The translations under genes were made by a program, and so were the position numbers. A DNA stretch of 64,000 bases from Kosakonia oryziphila (lineage in GTDB: Bacteria; Pseudomonadota; Gammaproteobacteria; Enterobacterales; Enterobacteriaceae). How positions within the stretch are numbered: the stretch's first letter is position 1; every line of letters begins with the position of its first letter. Positions 57,319 through 64,000 of this stretch are shown here, piece after piece. The stretch spans positions 62,001 to 126,000 of the forward strand of contig NZ_FMBC01000002.1 in the NCBI RefSeq assembly GCF_900094795.1, written 5' to 3'. Below the pieces are notes generated by a model that was not told the DNA's origin, searched no databases, and saw only the letters and a program-made list of their open reading frames with translations.

Positions 57319-58254
57319 TTGCTGCAGTTTCGTTATCTTGTGCTTTCTCTCGCCAGTGCGCTGATTTTCTCCGCGCCGGTTCTCGCCGGAAAACTGGCTA
57401 TCGTTATCGACGACTTTGGTTACCGTCCTCAGACTGAAAATCAGGTGCTGGCGATGCCGCAGGCGGTTTCCGTTGCGGTGTTGCCCAACGCCACATATGC
57501 ACGGGAAATGGCGACCAAAGCCCACAACAGCGGCCATGAGGTGCTAATTCACCTGCCGATGGCGCCGATCAGCAAGCAACCGCTGGAAAAAGATACTCTG
57601 CGTCCCGAAATGAGCAGCGCGGAGATTGAACGTATTATCAGCGATGCCGTCAGCAAAGTGCCCTACGCCGTGGGGCTGAATAACCACATGGGCAGCGCCA
57701 TGACTTCAAGCCTTTTCGGCATGCAAAAAGTGATGCAGGCGCTGGAGCGCTATAACCTCTACTTTCTCGACAGTATGACCATCGGCAACAGCCAGGCGAT
57801 ACGCGCATCAACGGGAACCGGCGTGAAGGTATTGAAGCGCAAAGTGTTTCTCGACGATACGCAAAATGAAGGAGATATTCGTCGCCAGTTTAACCGCGCC
57901 GTCGAGCTGGCTCGCCGTAACGGTTCCGCTATTGCTATCGGTCATCCGCATCCGACCACTGTTCGCGTTCTGCAACAGGCGCTGTCCAGCCTGCCTGCGG
58001 ATATCACGCTGGTGCGCCCGAGCAGCCTGCTGAATGAACCGCAGATCGATACTTCAACGCCAAACACCACAGCGCCTGGCAGCATCACGCCATCACCACG
58101 TAACCCATTCCGCGGTGTTAAGCAGTGTAAAACGAAGCAAAAACCGCAGCCGGTTTATGCCAGCCGCTTCTTTAGCGTGATAGGCGAAAGTATTGGTGAT
58201 AGTTCGCTAGTGCGTTATATGCAACATCAGTGGCAAGGCTGGGGCCTGAAATAA
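57319..58254 (+). CDS. yibQ: divergent polysaccharide deacetylase YibQ
   Basis: The 311-residue exported protein starts with TTG three bases after envC, with GGGAAG upstream, and has a signal sequence ending VLA. The deacetylase-fold motifs are KLAIVIDDFGYR, LIHLPMAP and AIGHPHPTT, with metal-binding Asp and His residues. It matches E. coli YibQ (319 aa) apart from a shorter, Pro/Thr-rich tail region. Its substrate is unknown; the operon suggests a link with peptidoglycan remodelling. It is the last backbone gene of the window. Confidence 0.92.
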   Translation: MLQFRYLVLSLASALIFSAPVLAGKLAIVIDDFGYRPQTENQVLAMPQAVSVAVLPNATYAREMATKAHNSGHEVLIHLPMAPISKQPLEKDTLRPEMSSAEIERIISDAVSKVPYAVGLNNHMGSAMTSSLFGMQKVMQALERYNLYFLDSMTIGNSQAIRASTGTGVKVLKRKVFLDDTQNEGDIRRQFNRAVELARRNGSAIAIGHPHPTTVRVLQQALSSLPADITLVRPSSLLNEPQIDTSTPNTTAPGSITPSPRNPFRGVKQCKTKQKPQPVYASRFFSVIGESIGDSSLVRYMQHQWQGWGLK

Positions 58255-58335
58255 TAATTTCCGCTGGTTAACGAAGATTCATCACCCAGCCTGTTCGTTT
58301 TAAGCGCCGCGTTGTACAAGCCAAAAGGTGAGGAA

Positions 58336-58390
58336 ATGCCGCAACGACATAAAATTCTCGTGCTTGATACGGGTAAGAGTGGGGTGGTAT
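58336..58390 (+). pseudogene. 5' stub of a probable glycosyltransferase gene
   Basis: AGGTGAGGAA precedes an ATG that encodes [14 protein letters not shown], after which similarity is lost into an insertion-sequence remnant. Some enterobacterial LPS-core glycosyltransferases, as I recall, start ..[13 protein letters not shown]; here GAGTGGGGTGG, which could encode EWGG, follows in a shifted frame, as if one A were missing from AAA. This would mean that a waa-type gene was frameshifted and then cut by the insertion. The identification depends on a short match. Confidence 0.45.
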
Positions 58391-58495
58391 TACAATCGCT
58401 GGCGACGCCACAGCGCCTGTGGTGGTCTCAGCCCGGAACAATTTGAAAACGAAAACTTCGCTTAGGGCTGTGTTCACATTACGTGGGTAGGATCA
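58384..58495 (+). mobile_element. 3' remnant of an IS3-family element
   Basis: The plus strand encodes [20 protein letters not shown] to the stop at 58465, the C-terminus of an IS3-family OrfB transposase (usual form YNRRRRHS.LG..SPE.F). It is followed by GTGTTCACATTACGTGGGTA and GGATCA (58470-58495), which resembles an IS3-family right inverted repeat (TGATCCTACCCACGTAAT in reverse). Only about the last 110 bp of the element remain. Confidence 0.7.
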
Positions 58496-58554
58496 CTTTG
58501 GTTGGATGCTGGAGAGGTTTGGGAATGAAGCAGCACATAAGAAACAATGTGCTG

Positions 58555-59408
58555 GAGACTGTAATTAAAATTGTCTAATTGCCTGTTTTTGATATGTTCA
58601 CTCCAACAACGGAGACAGGCAAATTATGGACGAAAAGAAACTCAAAGCGCTCGCTGCTGAACTGACTAAAGGCCTTAAAACCGAAGCCAACCTCAATCAG
58701 TTTTCCCGTATGCTGACGAAATTAACCGTCGAAACGGCGCTCAATGCGGAGCTGACTGACCATCCCGGGTATGAGAAAAATGCGCCCAGAACAGGTTCAA
58801 ACACCCGTAATGGCTACTCGTCGAAAACCCTGCTTTGTGATGACGACGAGATTGAGCTGAACACGCCGCGCGATCGTGAAAATACCTTTTAACCTCAGCT
58901 AATTAAGAAAAACCAGACGCGTATCACGCAGATGGACAGCCAGATTTTATCCCTTTACGCCAAAGGCATGACCACACGTGAAATCGTCGCCACCGTCAAA
59001 GAGATGTACGACGCCGATGTGTCGCCCACGCTGATATCTAAGGTCACCGACACTGTAAAAGAGCAGGTCACTGAGTGGCAAAACCGGCAACTGGATGCGT
59101 TGTATCCCGTTGTTTATATGGACTGCATTGTTGTAAAAGTCCGCCAGAATGGCAGCGTAATAAACAAAGCCGTCTTCCTCGCACCGGGCATCAACACCGA
59201 AGGCCAGAAAGCGTTACCGGGTATGTGGCTGGCTGAAAATGAAGGCGCAAAGTTCTGGCTGAATGTGCTGACGGAGCTGAAAAATCGTGGTCTCCAGGAC
59301 ATCCTGATTGCCTGCGTGGACGGTCTGAAGGGCTTCCCGGATGCGAAACAGCGTTTACCCGCAGACCCATATCCAGCTGTGTATCATCCATATGGTACGC
59401 AACAGCCT
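58555..59408 (+). mobile_element. decayed IS256-family element with broken transposase
   Basis: From ATG 58626 the product begins MDEKKLKALAAELTKGLKTE, a mutator-type (IS256 family) transposase. It is broken three times: an in-frame TAA at 58890-58892 where the family has Glu (ENTF-E-PQL); a two-base loss near 59343 that shifts the frame after GFPDA; and loss of everything after about 59408, including the third catalytic residue. The DDE Asp (YMDCIVVKV) and FPDA region remain. Left-end sequence probably extends to about 58555. The element cannot transpose. Confidence 0.8.
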
Positions 59409-59437
59409 CGTGTCGCACCACAGAATTACTGACAGGC

Positions 59438-59902
59438 TCACTCGCGTTTGATTTTTATTATGTCACCGCTTTTATTTAATGAATATCTTCCCTCATAAGT
59501 AGCAAAAATAACATCATCATCGTGGTATTGTCTGACAGCAAAAACAGCATTCTTTTCAATGCAATTTTCTTTTGTTTTCATATTATCAAAACAACGTCTG
59601 TCATACTTTCCCTCTTCCTTGTAACCGTCACCAAAATCCCAAAATATAATAGTGAAATTCCCTGAGGATGATGGTTTGGGAATATCATATTTATCCCTCA
59701 GCATATCTTTATTTTTTAGCCACCAGTTTACTTTTCCCTTATCTGTCACAGGGAAAGCTTTGACTAAAACAGAAGCATGGTTACCATCCTCATGAACTGC
59801 GACGATTTCCACTGTACGCAGCGACAACCAAAGCCAGCAGCCAAGCAGCACACACCCCGCCACGACGAGCAACATTATGGTTTTCTTATTTTTTACTCTC
59901 AT
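59438..59902 (-). CDS. DUF943-family membrane-anchored protein, copy 1
   Basis: The 154-residue protein has a basic start (MRVKNKK), a hydrophobic helix at residues 8-28 containing VAGC, and a C-terminal domain predicted outside the cytoplasm. The core VNWWLKNKDMLRDKYDIPKP, FWDFGDGYKEEGKYDRRCF and a second Cys ten residues on (ENCIEKN) recur in all three copies here; the two Cys could form a disulfide. The VAGC could be a lipobox, but hydrophobic residues continue after it, favouring a transmembrane anchor. It overlaps the upstream DUF3289 gene by four bases. Its function is unknown; an immunity-like partner role is inference. Copy 1 differs from the others mainly after residue 110. Confidence 0.8.
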   Translation of the reverse strand: MRVKNKKTIMLLVVAGCVLLGCWLWLSLRTVEIVAVHEDGNHASVLVKAFPVTDKGKVNWWLKNKDMLRDKYDIPKPSSSGNFTIIFWDFGDGYKEEGKYDRRCFDNMKTKENCIEKNAVFAVRQYHDDDVIFATYEGRYSLNKSGDIIKIKRE

Positions 59903-60735
59903 TTGCGAGACCCTGTGATTTCAATGGTGGTTTCCATTATGGTAATAAAGGGCTTGAAATTAAACTGGCTGTAACGCTGGAGCACAAACCAGATACGGAA
60001 GAAATGGAACTGATTAAACTTAACATTTGCTATGTCGTCACTATCCAACCCAAAGTGATCCTGAACTTTGTAATGGACTACAGCACGGTAACGATCATTA
60101 TCAACCTGTAATGACTTAATTGTGATATGTGTCGCCCAGGTATCGTGTACGGTTATTCCCATGCCGTTGAAGTTATCCTGAAAGCGGTCAAATTTGGGAA
60201 GCTTGCCATCCATGATTGCCCCCTTTAGCTCATCTTTCTCTCTTACAGGATAATATTTATTTCCCCAATCAATATTTTTTCCGATAACTTCCTTTAATCG
60301 TGCAAGCGTGCTGTTCTCTGCCCTGTCATTAACAATATGTTCCCTCAATGCCCTGTCCAGCAGCATATGCCGGAATGGTGCGCCGTTGGCTTTCTGCATA
60401 TGAGTGATCATCTGTTTAATGAGTGGCTTGTAAGGGCCGTACAGGGAAAAGGTGCGGGATAAGTCCCGGAACTCGTCAAAGAGAATAGCGGCGCACTGCT
60501 GCCGGGTGATTTTCTCCCCTTCGCCGCGGGAGCCATGAAACACTGACTGTGGCTGAGTGAATGGAGTAATTTTCGTCAGGGTGTAAGGGTTGGCTCTGGT
60601 GGAAACATCCAGCAAATGAAAATGCGTTTTTAACTGTGATTCTGATAAATCGCTGCAGTGCATATCTTTAGCGCTGTAGTCGTCCATCCGGTTTTGCGTT
60701 TGAAAAATAGTACAGGGAAACTGTAAGGCGGTCAT
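59899..60735 (-). CDS. DUF3289-family protein, copy 1
   Basis: The 278-residue soluble protein has no signal peptide. It begins TALQFPCTIFQTQNRMDDYS, followed by a helical middle and a C-terminal block (about residues 178-278) that is nearly identical in the three copies: GMGITVHDTWATHI, VVHYKVQDHFGLDSDDI and FFRIWFVLQR. The His/Asp-rich motif DHFGLD could be catalytic, but no enzyme family is assigned. AAGGA lies 10 bases before the ATG. The gene is preceded by a 102-bp block shared with copy 2 and followed by its DUF943 partner. Family assignment is from memory of the conserved blocks. Confidence 0.8.
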   Translation of the reverse strand: MTALQFPCTIFQTQNRMDDYSAKDMHCSDLSESQLKTHFHLLDVSTRANPYTLTKITPFTQPQSVFHGSRGEGEKITRQQCAAILFDEFRDLSRTFSLYGPYKPLIKQMITHMQKANGAPFRHMLLDRALREHIVNDRAENSTLARLKEVIGKNIDWGNKYYPVREKDELKGAIMDGKLPKFDRFQDNFNGMGITVHDTWATHITIKSLQVDNDRYRAVVHYKVQDHFGLDSDDIANVKFNQFHFFRIWFVLQRYSQFNFKPFITIMETTIEITGSRK

Positions 60736-60760
60736 CTTGATACATTCCTTGTGTAATCGT

Positions 60761-60862
60761 CCGTTGAAGTCTTCACAGGGAATAATACGCGGCGACTGGC
60801 GGGAGTATAAATCATGCAGTAATCCTGCCCGTAATTTTTTACAGATTCCGGGCAGGGGGATA
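60761..60862. repeat. 102-bp block shared upstream of DUF3289 copies 1 and 2
   Basis: This segment matches 62207-62308 with few differences. On the minus strand it can encode IPLPGICKNYGQDYC then MIYTPASRRVLFPVKTS. In copy 2 this frame runs into the DUF3289 protein. In copy 1 the A-run after ATCTGT has six instead of five A's, which breaks the first part, and the MIYTP frame ends at the TGA overlapping the copy 1 ATG. It marks the boundary of the duplicated unit. Confidence 0.75.
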
Positions 60863-60898
60863 ACAATGAACCATGTTTCAAGGTGTTTGGCCTCGGTT

Positions 60899-61363
60899 CT
60901 AATCTGATTTGTTTTTTACCATCTTACCGCTGTCGTTTAGACGATATGTTCCGCTATCCAGAGAGAAATAAGTCCCGGTATTCTTACTGTTATTCACCAT
61001 TAAAAGAGAATTTTTATCGATGCAATTTATTGGTGGTTTCATATCAGTAAAACAGCGTCTATCATATTTACCTTCTTCCTTATATCCATCGCCAAAATCC
61101 CAAAATACTATTGAGAAAAAACCATCACTTGCAGGTTTCGGGATATTATATTTTTCTTTTAAGATCGCATTATTTTTGATCCACCAGTCTATTTTTCCTC
61201 GGTCAGTTAAAGGGAAGTTTCTTACCAGAATAGAGCTGAATTCTCCATCTTCATGCACTGCCACAACCTCTACAGGACGGAAAGAAAATAAGAGAAAGTA
61301 ACCCAGTAGGGCGCAACTAATCAGTAATGATGCCAAAAGAATTTTTTTATTTTTAGATTTCAT
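60899..61363 (-). CDS. DUF943-family membrane-anchored protein, copy 2
   Basis: The 154-residue protein starts MKSKNKKILLASLLISC, has one membrane helix (about 8-28), and the conserved core IDWWIKNNAILKEKYNIPKP, FWDFGDGYKEEGKYDRRCF and PINCIDKN. The C-terminal 40 residues diverge strongly from copies 1 and 3. I chose the ATG at 61363, equivalent to the MRVKNKK starts of the other copies; it overlaps the upstream DUF3289 gene by 11 bases. An ATG four codons earlier is possible. Confidence 0.8.
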   Translation of the reverse strand: MKSKNKKILLASLLISCALLGYFLLFSFRPVEVVAVHEDGEFSSILVRNFPLTDRGKIDWWIKNNAILKEKYNIPKPASDGFFSIVFWDFGDGYKEEGKYDRRCFTDMKPPINCIDKNSLLMVNNSKNTGTYFSLDSGTYRLNDSGKMVKNKSD

Positions 61364-62306
61364 TACGGGCCCCAATAATCTCTACAGTGGCTTCCATATT
61401 TGTCATGAATGGCTTGAAACCAAACTGGTTGTACCGCTGGAGAACAAACCAGATACGGAAAAAATGAAACTGATTGAATTTTGTTTTCGTTATATCGTCG
61501 CTGTCGAGGCCAAAGTGATCCTGTACCTTGTAATGCACCACTGCCCGGTATCGGTCATTTTCAATATGCAGTGATTTTATGGTGATATGCGTTGCCCAGG
61601 TATCATGAACGGTGATACCCATGCCGTTAAAATTATCCTGGAATCTGTCAAACTTAGGTAATCGTCCTTCAAGGATAGCTTTTCTCAATCTGTCTTGTTT
61701 TTCCGCTGGAAAATGCTTGCTTTCCCAGTCGATGCCTGTTTTTAAGGCTTTTGATAACAGAATGCGTGTACTGTTCTTCTCCGAAGAATCCCTAATAATC
61801 TGCTCTTTCAATGCCCTGTCCAGAGACATATCACGAAACGGCGTATCGTTGCCGTTCTGCATGTGAGTAATCATCTTTTCGATCAGGTGACTGTAAGGCC
61901 CATAAAGGGAAAATTTGCGGGATAATGAGCGGAATTCGTCAAACAGCATGGCGGCGCATTGCTGGCGGGTAATTTTCTCCCCGGCTCTACGCAAATTGCA
62001 GCAGAACATGGACTGAGGACGATCCATTGAGGAACGCCGGGTAAGCGTCCACGGATCAACCCGGTCAGAAATATAATCCAGCCGGTACCGGGATTTTAAC
62101 TGTGCTTCAGTCAGATCGCCGCAGCGCATATCACTGGCGCTGTAGTCGTCCATCCACTTTTGGGTTTTGAATATGGTGCTGGGAAACTGTAATGCAGCCA
62201 TCAGTTCCGTTGAAGTCTTCACAGGGAATAATACGCGGCGACTGGCGGGAGTGTAAATCATGCAGTAATCCTGCCCGTAATTTTTACAGATTCCGGGCAG
62301 GGGCAT
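61353..62306 (-). CDS. DUF3289-family protein, copy 2 (with N-terminal extension)
   Basis: The longest frame gives 317 residues. Residues 36-317 align with copy 1 from MAALQFPSTIFKTQKWMDDY on. The first 35 residues (PLPGICKNYGQDYCMIYTPA onward) are encoded by the 102-bp block that is out of frame in copy 1, so the real start may be the ATG at 62201 or 62261. The C-terminal ~100 residues are almost identical to copies 1 and 3. The middle (RALKEQIIRDSSEKNSTRIL and the next 25 residues) is variable. It ends GARNEI, three residues longer than its paralogs. Confidence 0.78.
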   Translation of the reverse strand: MPLPGICKNYGQDYCMIYTPASRRVLFPVKTSTELMAALQFPSTIFKTQKWMDDYSASDMRCGDLTEAQLKSRYRLDYISDRVDPWTLTRRSSMDRPQSMFCCNLRRAGEKITRQQCAAMLFDEFRSLSRKFSLYGPYSHLIEKMITHMQNGNDTPFRDMSLDRALKEQIIRDSSEKNSTRILLSKALKTGIDWESKHFPAEKQDRLRKAILEGRLPKFDRFQDNFNGMGITVHDTWATHITIKSLHIENDRYRAVVHYKVQDHFGLDSDDITKTKFNQFHFFRIWFVLQRYNQFGFKPFMTNMEATVEIIGARNEI

Positions 62307-62324
62307 AGTAGACGCTCTACGTTC

Positions 62325-62642
62325 TCAGTCCATCATCAAAATGACGCGCGGTAAGACCAGATCAGAACGCTGGGTGTCAAAATTGGCGAGATCAGCACGG
62401 TATTTTTTGCCTGTTTTCGTGTTCTCCAGGATAGCCGCGCCAATTTCCATAATATTCACCTGTTCCCACTCAATAAGGTTGGCAGGGTCAGGATACTGAT
62501 AGAGGGTGATCATCCCTGCATGAGCAAGTACAAGTAACTCTATTTCTTCACAGCCAAGATGTTTGGTTGCCAGCGGTAGGGGGTAATAATCAAATAGCAA
62601 ATAGCGCGATAAAATCACGTATTCGCTACGTTCGCCATCCAC
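62325..62642 (-). CDS. hypothetical 105-residue protein between array units
   Basis: The frame starts with GTG (AAGG seven bases upstream) and ends 18 bases before copy 2 of DUF3289. The product is acidic and looks like a folded beta-rich domain (IELLVLAHAGMITLYQYPDP, GAAILENTKTGKKYRADLAN). I do not recognise it. Stop codons lie directly upstream in this frame, while the other minus-strand frame is open there (see 62615-62791), so it could be the C-terminal part of a longer, frameshifted gene. Confidence 0.5.
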   Translation of the reverse strand: MDGERSEYVILSRYLLFDYYPLPLATKHLGCEEIELLVLAHAGMITLYQYPDPANLIEWEQVNIMEIGAAILENTKTGKKYRADLANFDTQRSDLVLPRVILMMD

Positions 62643-62791
62643 GCAATCGCCTTACTAAAAGGGTGTGAGGCCGGCGGTAAGGTGTTCTCTCCGTCGGGAT
62701 AGCCTCCTGAGCATTCTGCTACTTCCGCATGGCTGGTGCAAGCCGGGCAGGTGGCAATGGTTTTATTACTGTCTCTACGCGAGGGGAAAAC
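62615..62791 (-). pseudogene. start-less open frame with a CxxC motif, possible gene remnant
   Basis: Immediately after the stop of DUF943 copy 3, and in its frame, 58 codons are open. They encode RRDSNKTIATCPACTSHAEV then AECSGGYPDGENTLPP and end MANVANT. There is no ATG and no ribosome-binding site. The CPAC pair and composition look like coding sequence. It overlaps the start of the 105-residue gene in another frame, so the two may be halves of one gene split by a frameshift. Confidence 0.35.
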
Positions 62792-63262
62792 CTAATCGGA
62801 TGCGACTTTTATAATATCACCATTATGGTCTAAGCGATAATTATCACCATCGTATACGGTGAACATTACGCCCATATTTCTGCTTTTATCTACAGAAAAA
62901 ACAGCATCCTTTTCGATGCAATTTACTTTTGTCTTCATATCATCAAAACAAAGTCTGTCATATTTTTCCTCTTTTTTATATCCTTCCCCAAACAACCAGA
63001 AGGTGACATAAAAGTAGCCATCTGAATCAGGTTTGGGAATACCATATTTATCTTTTAACATATCCTTGTTTTTTAACCACCAGTTAATTTTTCCTTTATC
63101 AGTCGGCGGGAAACTAGTGACTAAAACATCACTGAAACCACTACTTCTGTGATGGATAGCGACAATCTCTACTGGACGCAGAGACAACCAAAGCCAGTAG
63201 CCAAGTAACACGCAGCCAGCCAGAAAGAGCGGAACAATAGTTTTCTTGTTTTTCACTCTCAT
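62792..63262 (-). CDS. DUF943-family membrane-anchored protein, copy 3
   Basis: The 156-residue protein has MRVKNKKTIVPLFLAGCVLL (helix about 8-28, with a lipobox-like LAGC) and the conserved core INWWLKNKDMLKDKYGIPKP, EEKYDRLCF and VNCIEKD. It carries FWLFGEGYKK in place of FWDFGDGYKE and a two-residue insertion after VAIH. The C-terminus is distinct. It overlaps DUF3289 copy 3 by four bases (ATGA). Confidence 0.8.
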   Translation of the reverse strand: MRVKNKKTIVPLFLAGCVLLGYWLWLSLRPVEIVAIHHRSSGFSDVLVTSFPPTDKGKINWWLKNKDMLKDKYGIPKPDSDGYFYVTFWLFGEGYKKEEKYDRLCFDDMKTKVNCIEKDAVFSVDKSRNMGVMFTVYDGDNYRLDHNGDIIKVASD

Positions 63263-64000
63263 TTTCGAGTTCCTGTAATTTCTATAGTGGCTTCCATATT
63301 GGTCATAAATGGCTTGAAACCAAACTGATTGTACCGCTGGAGAACAAACCAGATGCGGAAGAAATGAAACTGGCTGAATTTTGTTTTCAGAATATCATCG
63401 CTATCCAGACCAAAGTGATCCTGTACCTTGTAATGGACCACAGCCCGATAACGGTCATTATCAATATGCAGTGATTTTATGGTGATATGTGTTGCCCAGG
63501 TATCATGAACGGTGATACCCATACCGTTAAAGTTATCCTGGAAGCGGTCAAATTTGGGGAGTTTCCCACCGAGAATTATTTCTTTTAATTTATTCTTCTC
63601 GTTTGCTGGATAACATTTCTTATCCCAATCAATATTTTTTTCAATAAATTCGTATAGTCTCAGACGAGTACTGTTTTTTGTCATGTCATTAAGAATCTGC
63701 TCTTTCAATGCCCTGTCCAGCGCCATATCCCGGAAGGGTGTACCGTTACCATGCTGCATATGGGTGATCATCTTTTCGATCAGGTGGCTGTAAGGCCCAT
63801 AAAGGGAAAATTTGCGGGATAATGAGCGGAACTCGTCAAACAGCATTGCGGTACACTGCTGGCGGGTAATCTTTTCACCCTTGCCACGTAGATTACAGCA
63901 GAACATGGACTGGGGACGATCCATCGAGGAACGCCGGGTAAGCGTCCAGGGATCAACGCGGCCAGAAATATAGTCCAGCCGGTACTGGGATTTTAACTGT
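63259..64000 (-). CDS. DUF3289-family protein, copy 3 (5' end outside the window)
   Basis: The frame stays open to the window edge, giving about 246 visible residues; the visible part begins QLKSQYRLDYISGRVDPWTL, aligning with residue 70 of copy 2. The C-terminal block is nearly identical to copy 2, while the central stretch (DMTKNSTRLRLYEFIEKNID) is different. The gene shows that the array continues beyond the window. Its ATG overlaps nothing visible; its stop overlaps DUF943 copy 3. Confidence 0.8.
   Translation of the reverse strand, partial: QLKSQYRLDYISGRVDPWTLTRRSSMDRPQSMFCCNLRGKGEKITRQQCTAMLFDEFRSLSRKFSLYGPYSHLIEKMITHMQHGNGTPFRDMALDRALKEQILNDMTKNSTRLRLYEFIEKNIDWDKKCYPANEKNKLKEIILGGKLPKFDRFQDNFNGMGITVHDTWATHITIKSLHIDNDRYRAVVHYKVQDHFGLDSDDILKTKFSQFHFFRIWFVLQRYNQFGFKPFMTNMEATIEITGTRK

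What the first reader, a model, noticed from the sequence alone, without database searches (positions are those of the whole stretch)
59438..64000. Tandem array of DUF3289-DUF943 gene pairs at the LPS-locus boundary: candidate effector/immunity system
Seen: three minus-strand pairs, each a soluble ~280-residue DUF3289-type protein followed, with codon overlap, by a ~155-residue protein with one N-terminal membrane helix and an extracytoplasmic domain with two conserved Cys. The array is AT-richer than the flanking backbone, bordered by IS debris, and continues past the window. Known: multiplied pairs of a soluble protein and a small anchored partner are typical of antagonism cassettes whose toxin acts in the periplasm and whose anchored immunity protein neutralises it there. 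Inference: DUF3289 is the effector and DUF943 the cognate immunity protein. Against: no secretion gene (VgrG, PAAR, Hcp, Rhs, CdiB) lies in the window and DUF3289 has no visible export signal.
Basis: partly seen in the sequence, partly recalled or inferred. Interest (0 to 1): 0.8.

Follow-up and report, generated by a model that had tools for sequence, protein, structure and literature searches.

The report
Shuffled anti-bacterial toxin and immunity pairs
The array is a set of bacterial weapon-and-antidote gene pairs of a kind already reported in print, but this genome carries an unusually large, scattered stock of them, and one short stretch of the toxin appears to change together with its antidote while the rest of the toxin is reshuffled.

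Summary
In detail: three minus-strand DUF3289-DUF943 pairs, continuing past the window. Independent support: models of the two proteins separately hit the two chains of one crystallised T6SS effector-immunity complex (9jdi); colicin M-like bacteriocins follow, weakly, for the effector. The colicin M catalytic motif is absent (0 of 97).

What looks new: this genome holds 12 near-full-length effector and 15 full-length immunity genes on 10 contigs; 116 relatives have 0-5 DUF3289 matches each. Across 73 pairs, a 43-residue effector segment is the most variable region and tracks the partner immunity protein (nearest neighbours agree in 37 of 73; 43 more variable columns elsewhere: 18). In this genome's 11 full pairs only that segment correlates with immunity (r 0.50, p 0.0014), although the toxin's C-terminal part is encoded nearer the immunity gene. 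Flanks are mosaic.

Best reading: a cell-wall toxin with an exchangeable recognition segment and matching immunity gene, delivered as orphan T6SS cargo. Binding, substrate and delivery here are inferred.

The parts
59438..59902 (-). DUF943 immunity gene, pair 1 (154 aa)
   Evidence: E 8e-59
59899..60735 (-). DUF3289 effector gene, pair 1 (278 aa; NCBIfam YPO3983 family)
   Evidence: E 1.4e-113; TIGR03034, E 3.4e-118
60202..60330 (-). hypervariable segment of effector 1 (residues 136-178), the part that tracks the immunity protein
   Evidence: coordinates checked by translation
60736..60862 (-). conserved leader of pair 1
   Evidence: C41:122736-122862, 84% to the leader of copy 3
60899..61375 (-). 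DUF943 immunity gene, pair 2
   Evidence: E 4.6e-61
61353..62306 (-). DUF3289 effector gene, pair 2 (conserved start at 62201)
   Evidence: (E 1.2e-110)
61662..61793 (-). hypervariable segment of effector 2
62206..62325 (-). conserved leader of pair 2
   Evidence: C41:124206-124325
62325..62642 (-). 105-aa ORF of unknown family, repeated once more after pair 3; relation to the pairs unclear
   Evidence: no family; second copy in L059, relative in Pantoea septica L088
62643..62792 (-). conserved trailer after the DUF943 of pair 3, recurring after other DUF943 genes of the genome
   Evidence: 8 places, each next to a DUF943 gene
62792..63262 (-). DUF943 immunity gene, pair 3
   Evidence: E 2.7e-59
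63259..63999 (-). DUF3289 effector gene, pair 3 (5' end beyond the window, window-scale 64224)
63562..63690 (-). hypervariable segment of effector 3
58626..59432 (+). remnants of a Mutator-family transposase at the left border
   Evidence: PF00872, E 1.2e-9 and 1.4e-49

Best explanation
Each pair is an antibacterial effector (DUF3289) and its cognate immunity protein (DUF943). The effector is an orphan cargo protein loaded on a type VI secretion system encoded elsewhere in the genome and injected into neighbours, where it acts in the periplasm on the cell wall through a colicin M-like fold, probably on a lipid-linked precursor. DUF943 is anchored in the inner membrane, faces the periplasm and blocks the effector in the producer and its kin. 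One helical segment of the effector (residues about 120-178, core 136-178) varies most, and I infer that it carries immunity recognition. Segment and immunity gene change together, whereas flanking effector sequence is exchanged among copies by recombination. The genome thus stores a dozen different attack/defence specificities, plus three immunity genes whose effectors are gone. Shown here: pair anatomy, copy number, fold matches, segment-immunity covariation, mosaicism, retention of immunity genes. Shown by others for relatives: toxicity, neutralisation, T6SS secretion. Inferred: delivery by this genome's T6SS, a lipid II-like substrate, the segment as the binding site.
For: Effector model (pLDDT 89.9): best PDB match 9jdi_A, T6SS effector BtpeA of Bacteroides fragilis (Foldseek E 2.7e-11, probability 1.00; VIA Z 15.5, 231 residues, rmsd 3.4); VIA ranks 2-12 are all colicin M-like bacteriocins (Z 6.1-4.0, 132-175 residues, rmsd 4.7-9.4), unrelated rows start at Z 3.1. 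DUF943 model (pLDDT 91.6): best match 9jdi_C, the partner chain BtpiA of the same crystal (Foldseek E 1.8e-3, probability 0.98; Z 8.2, 109 residues, rmsd 3.7, against 4.0 for the next row). PAAR-DUF3289 fusion, and VgrG beside an M23-type DUF3289 gene, in same-genus genome G004. All 14 genomes of 117 with a DUF3289 match also have a TssC match; 60 of 117 do overall. 97 of 101 full-length effectors are followed by DUF943. Segment against immunity: nearest neighbours agree in 37 of 73 against 9, 14 and 18 for the other regions; Mantel in this genome's 11 pairs r 0.499, p 0.0014, other regions -0.04 to 0.05; 43 more variable columns elsewhere give 18 of 73 and r -0.007. Mosaic copies: C66 and window copy 1 have synonymous difference 0.00 over residues 1-60 but 0.62-0.83 in the rest of the effector.
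Against: The colicin M catalytic motif is absent (0 of 97), and Foldseek alone ranks colicin M-like chains only at E 0.03-0.5, probability 0.13-0.25, so the chemistry may differ. Z 8.2 for DUF943 is at the border of what unrelated models reach, by the tool's own note. No pair lies in the fetched 20-kb stretches around this genome's TssC genes, no VgrG, PAAR or TssC match lies on the window's contig, and no loading signal was found or looked for. One counterexample to covariation: two Erwinia rhapontici copies (L100) with nearly the same segment (0.05) but different immunity (0.45). Over all 73 pairs the C-terminal region keeps a weaker partial correlation (0.17, p 0.006) and residues 1-60 too (0.10, p 0.017). 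The closest cross-genus matches share the C-terminal region as well as segment and immunity. No complex was modelled. T6SS and DUF3289 presence are both clustered by genus (8 of the 14 are one genus) and three of the 14 (G010, G041, G042) hold only fragments or broken DUF3289. The segment was picked by its variability and four regions were tested; p values are not corrected.
Confidence: 0.75

Rival explanations
1. The pairs are effector and immunity, but the segment-immunity covariation reflects co-inheritance of linked DNA rather than recognition.
For: Segment and immunity gene lie about 0.3 kb apart, and the closest matches across genera share the whole 3' part (own C46 copy and Dryocola L126: C-terminal distance 0.00; C60 and Pantoea septica 0.04; C66 and Rosenbergiella 0.04).
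Against: Linkage predicts that the C-terminal region, encoded between segment and DUF943, tracks immunity best; it does worse (18 of 73 against 37; own genome r -0.04 against 0.50).
Confidence: 0.25
2. The effector keeps a colicin M-like fold but has other chemistry, or another envelope substrate, than colicin M.
For: The motif D-x-Y-D-x5-H-R is absent from 97 of 97 DUF3289 proteins; instead DHFGLD (93 of 97) and F-x-R-x-W-F-x-L-Q (80 of 97) are conserved; the fold match to colicin M-like proteins is only Z 4.0-6.1.
Against: All 11 entries ranked after 9jdi by VIA are colicin M-like; periplasmic expression of a relative rounds E. coli cells (PMC11148199, passages).
Confidence: 0.4
3. An intracellular toxin-antitoxin or housekeeping pair, not a secreted weapon.
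Against: Membrane-helix partner, PAAR fusion in a relative, T6SS secretion of an Aeromonas homologue (PMC12135965, passages), match to a T6SS effector-immunity complex.
Confidence: 0.04
4. Most extra copies are decaying, unexpressed passengers; only one or two pairs work.
For: Fragments and truncated copies are frequent (30 N-truncated and 26 C-truncated ORFs in the loci read); expression is unknown.
Against: In this genome 11 effectors are full length and intact, one lacks 35 or more N-terminal residues, and all 12 keep a full-length DUF943; outside the segment dN/dS in own copies is 0.06-0.20, with high synonymous divergence.
Confidence: 0.15

Closest known systems
DUF3289/DUF943 T6SS effector-immunity pair T6EC1/T6IC1 (PMC11148199, passages)
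   Same: Same two Pfam families, adjacent genes, one N-terminal membrane helix in the immunity protein, colicin M-like fold.
   Different: T6EC1 is a specialised PAAR effector inside a T6SS operon; here the effectors are PAAR-less, in many copies, away from the T6SS genes, with a variable segment that I did not see described in the passages read.
BtpeA-BtpiA of Bacteroides fragilis (PDB 9jdi; entry title only, no paper found)
   Same: Its two chains are the best structural matches of the two models.
   Different: Another phylum; longer effector; the DUF943 profile does not find the immunity protein by sequence.
Colicin M and Cmi (PMC8469651, passages)
   Same: Weak fold match to the effector; periplasmic action; membrane-anchored immunity protein with two conserved cysteines.
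   Different: Receptor-imported bacteriocin; catalytic motif absent here; Cys104/Cys114 lie ten residues apart, unlike Cys31/Cys107 of Cmi.
Orphan immunity gene arrays of Vibrio cholerae T6SS clusters (PMC5361080, abstract and one section)
   Same: Immunity genes kept after loss of the effector; mosaic recombination; sharing of modules across species.
   Different: There the arrays sit in T6SS clusters and successive modules replace effectors; here one effector family varies mostly in one segment, and modules are dispersed.

Membership tests
DUF3289 (PF11692) / YPO3983 family | profile score above the curated cut-off over the full length | tested here: met
   379.4 bits, cut-off 25, profile 1-272 of 272; TIGR03034 394 bits, cut-off 156
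DUF943 (PF06092) | profile score above the curated cut-off | tested here: met
   198-205 bits, cut-off 25
T6SS effector-immunity pair | immunity gene directly next to the effector gene | tested here: met
   97 of 101 full-length effectors; 12 of 12 near-full-length effectors of this genome
T6SS effector-immunity pair | T6SS in the same genome | tested here: met
   three intact TssC genes; VgrG-type matches; TssB, TssC, TssK, TssL, TssM and Hcp families in one cluster (L069)
T6SS effector-immunity pair | T6SS-dependent secretion and killing of a strain lacking immunity | not testable with these tools
   shown for an Aeromonas DUF3289 protein by PMC12135965 (passages), not for these copies
Colicin M family | conserved catalytic motif D226-x-Y-D-x5-H-R236 | tested here: not met
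   0 of 97; motif from PMC8469651
Colicin M family | fold of the catalytic domain | tested here: inconclusive
   ranks 2-12 all colicin M-like, Z 4.0-6.1, above unrelated rows (3.1 and less) but below Z 8; Foldseek E 0.03-0.5
Colicin M family | hydrolysis of lipid II | not testable with these tools
   biochemical assay needed
Cmi-type colicin M immunity | Cmi structure among matches of the DUF943 model | tested here: inconclusive
   best match is BtpiA (9jdi_C, Z 8.2); absence of a row does not exclude

The most novel reading that the evidence does not exclude
The pairs form a modular recognition code: a cell-wall toxin carries one exchangeable recognition segment of about 45-60 residues that, with its immunity gene, circulates among genera of Enterobacterales. 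Each genome assembles its own mostly non-redundant set of codes by recombination in the more conserved flanks, keeping retired codes as immunity-only genes. That would be a kin-recognition repertoire built from a single toxin family, read out in one stretch of about 43 residues.
Probability: 0.5. Interest if true: 0.65.

Novelty: new variant of a known kind. Interest (0 to 1): 0.45.

Why it matters
The effector/immunity role is known, but the large dispersed stock and the single most variable segment turn a question about T6SS pairs (what decides which immunity protein works, and how new specificities arise) into a small test on natural variants: one genome supplies 12 effectors and 15 immunity proteins. 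If it holds, the segment would be a simple sequence predictor of compatibility between strains. DUF3289 lacks the colicin M active-site motif, so its chemistry remains open.

Tried and rejected
Leader hairpin as a conserved RNA element: a 15-bp stem is strong in window copy 3 (z -3.2), but long stems at that place recur only in a subset of 93 leaders, and Rfam gave one chance-level hit inside the transposase remnant and nothing in the array (window 58000-64000); dropped. Positive selection on the segment: in own copies its synonymous sites are saturated, and where computable dN/dS is 0.17-0.33, so a ratio above 1 is not shown; recombination of old variants fits better. Phage or plasmid carriage: 12 plasmid-collection records (two Pantoea plasmids at 69-75% identity) and two 'phage' records that are large Salmonella contigs; no blastn match in E. 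coli genomes, although E. coli has distant homologues. YPO3983 by name: no paper. BtpeA/BtpiA by name: no relevant paper; PDB codes: only unrelated papers. TseP (PMC11893102, abstract and passages) was considered as the solved homologue; its structure is 8XCL and the term DUF does not occur in its main text, so I took it for another effector. CsrA control of translation is only a lead. Rows dropped: of 81 effectors of at least 270 aa and 400 bits, 8 without an adjacent DUF943 of at least 140 aa and 180 bits were left out of the 73 pairs (L033, L088, L093, L094, L097, L099, L103, L104), mostly for a short, divergent or cut DUF943; the N-truncated C89 copy also falls out by length. In 'truncated' is judged from ORFs, so frameshifted genes count as fragments. 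The scan of named genomes kept the best 80 of 89, so distant relatives are under-represented.
Full report
Observation. The window ends in three minus-strand DUF3289-DUF943 pairs, lower in GC than most of the window, with transposase remnants on the left. Beyond the window the third effector is completed, a second copy of a 105-aa ORF follows, then an orphan DUF943 gene with a C-terminal remnant of an effector before it, and then a dehydrogenase that I name tdh from its family and place. In the 15 genomes of the genus that were searched, the distance between the matches of the gene left of the array (a polysaccharide deacetylase, yibQ by recall) and of tdh, worked out by hand, is 55 to 3,241 bp in the 13 other genomes where both lie on one contig, and 7,113 bp here; in G007 they lie on different contigs. 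No DUF3289 match of those genomes lies in that gap. Among the genomes examined the array is thus particular to this one, at a junction of variable size.

The genome. DUF3289 matches 15 places and DUF943 17 places in 4.81 Mb. Read as genes there are 11 intact full-length effectors, one lacking 35 or more N-terminal residues (C89), one fragment of about 158 residues (C46), remnants at C75, C24 and C41, and 15 full-length DUF943 genes plus one broken copy (C75). The 12 effectors and 15 immunity genes lie on 10 contigs. All 12 effectors are followed by DUF943. Three DUF943 genes have lost their effector: at C41 and C24 only the last 26-27 codons of it remain, and at C83 the immunity gene is joined in frame to the first residues of an effector. 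Among 117 genomes (own plus relatives) DUF3289 has matches in 14, with 1-5 each in the other 13. A leader of about 145 bp and a trailer of about 150 bp recur in the genome only at these loci (13 places, one of them an inverted self-match; 8 places); not every copy has a detectable one. The duplicated unit is therefore leader, effector, immunity, trailer. No two of the 11 full own pairs are alike: the closest differ by 0.28 in both the segment defined below and the immunity protein.

Delivery. TssC is found three times intact and once broken in the genome, with VgrG-type matches on C123, C52, C90 and C23 and weaker ones elsewhere, PAAR matches, and TssB, TssC, TssK, TssL, TssM and Hcp families in one cluster. 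All 14 genomes with a DUF3289 match have a TssC match, 60 of 117 overall; 8 of the 14 are of one genus (own included) and three hold only fragments or broken DUF3289, so this is a weak, uncorrected association. In G004 the domain is fused behind a PAAR motif (E 2e-5, just under Pfam's cut-off) and, in another gene, behind a weak M23 match next to a VgrG gene. Literature agrees: DUF3289 as a PAAR-linked toxin of unknown activity (PMC8651086, one passage), in a table of RIX effectors (PMC10435454, one passage), beside VgrG in Enterobacter (PMC10763514, passage), linked with DUF943 in Klebsiella (PMC12469244, passage), tested in E. coli (PMC11148199, passages) and secreted by the Aeromonas T6SS (PMC12135965, passages). 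In the last case the partner is a different small membrane protein.

Structure. The effector model (pLDDT 89.9) matches 9jdi_A, the T6SS effector BtpeA of Bacteroides fragilis, also visible by sequence (E 7e-18, residues 180-275). The next 11 VIA rows are colicin M-like bacteriocins at Z 4.0-6.1 with rmsd 4.7-9.4; unrelated entries begin at 3.1; Foldseek alone gives them only E 0.03-0.5. The DUF943 model (pLDDT 91.6) matches 9jdi_C, the immunity chain of the same crystal (probability 0.98; Z 8.2 against 4.0 for the next row), although its profile finds nothing by sequence at E below 0.7. Taken alone Z 8.2 would be borderline; that two separate searches land on the two halves of one solved effector-immunity complex is what persuades me. 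The colicin M motif, from PMC8469651 (passages), is absent from 97 of 97 sequences, so the substrate chemistry is an inference from the fold and from rounding of cells reported for a relative.

Arrays elsewhere. A scan of named genomes gave 70 loci: 119 stretches matched, 89 encoded a relative, the best 80 were kept. They come mainly from Erwinia, Tatumella, Pantoea, Rosenbergiella, Dryocola and Serratia. With the own and relative stretches, 100 of 101 loci examined have matches. They hold 101 full-length non-edge effectors, 97 of them with DUF943 next. Of 191 non-edge DUF943 genes 97 follow a full effector, 40 follow another DUF943, 34 follow an effector ORF without its N-terminus, and 20 fall in none of these classes. 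So immunity genes often stand without an intact effector, whereas intact effectors without immunity are hardly seen.

The variable segment. In 73 pairs the most variable stretch of the effector is residues 136-178: mean entropy 1.77 bits, against 0.96 (1-60), 0.97 (61-135) and 0.63 (179-278). Distances in that segment follow distances between immunity proteins: partial Mantel 0.29 (p 0.001) against 0.17 (C-terminal, p 0.006), 0.10 (1-60, p 0.017) and 0.00 (61-135). In the 11 own pairs r is 0.50 (p 0.0014) for the segment and -0.04 to 0.05 elsewhere. The nearest neighbour by segment is the nearest by immunity in 37 of 73 pairs, 35 of 73 if only other genomes are allowed; other regions give 9-18 and 13-19. 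The 43 most variable single columns outside the segment are more divergent than it (0.69 against 0.55) but give 18 of 73 and r -0.007; contiguous windows clear of residues 130-180 reach at most 19 of 73 and r 0.18. The scan peaks over residues 119-178, so the boundary chosen by eye is not critical. Simple linkage would favour the C-terminal region, which is encoded between segment and immunity gene.

Sharing and mosaicism. Segment-immunity types are shared across genera: an own C46 copy with Dryocola (segment 0.05, immunity 0.02, C-terminal 0.00), C60 with Pantoea septica (0.05, 0.04, 0.04), C66 with Rosenbergiella (0.05, 0.05, 0.04), each with 0.10-0.15 difference in residues 1-60. The shared unit in these cases is thus the 3' part of the effector plus the immunity gene. 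Within the genome flanks are exchanged: C66 and window copy 1 have synonymous difference 0.00 over residues 1-60 and 0.62-0.83 in the rest of the effector; window copy 3 and C26 have 0.03, then 0.30, 0.75 (segment) and 0.50. An exception to covariation is L100.

Conclusion. The system is a T6SS-type effector/immunity family whose role is published. I read abstracts, passages or single sections, not whole papers, so an earlier description cannot be excluded.

Noticed in passing
upstream of the DUF3289 starts, e.g. window 60736-60790 (minus strand): The ribosome-binding region carries two GGA motifs, the second in ACA(A/G)GG(A/G), in 66 of 93 effector leaders (0.3% of mononucleotide shuffles). 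It resembles a CsrA/RsmA site (consensus recalled, not from a call) and could link translation to T6SS control; shared ancestry may explain the conservation.
   Followed up: partly
L037 (7143-9364) and L042 (10398-12255): One long DUF3289 gene (PAAR motif found in the L037 protein) followed by five and four tandem DUF943 genes in two same-genus genomes.
   Followed up: no
L039 6237-11112; L040 7862-10355; L043 9355-11947: DUF3289 proteins of 666-700 aa (weak M23 matches in L039 and L040; VgrG beside L039) are followed by a 161-165 aa protein that is not found by my DUF943 profile in L039 and L040 and only at 21 bits in L043.
   Followed up: no
window 62325-62642 and L059 8243-8560: A 105-aa ORF is duplicated in the array; the window copy has no Pfam or NCBIfam match; a relative lies in Pantoea septica L088.
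   Followed up: partly
window 58251 to window-scale 65364 (deacetylase-tdh junction): The junction varies from 55 to 3,241 bp in 13 relatives and is 7,113 bp here, so it looks like an insertion hotspot (distances by hand).
   Followed up: partly
NZ_CP143412.1 and NZ_OW970316.1: Close DUF3289 homologues (75% and 69%) on 0.47 and 0.53 Mb Pantoea agglomerans plasmids, a possible route of spread.
   Followed up: no
L100 (5393-6301 and 6903-7766): Two Erwinia rhapontici effectors have nearly the same segment but different DUF943 partners, the clearest exception to covariation.
   Followed up: no
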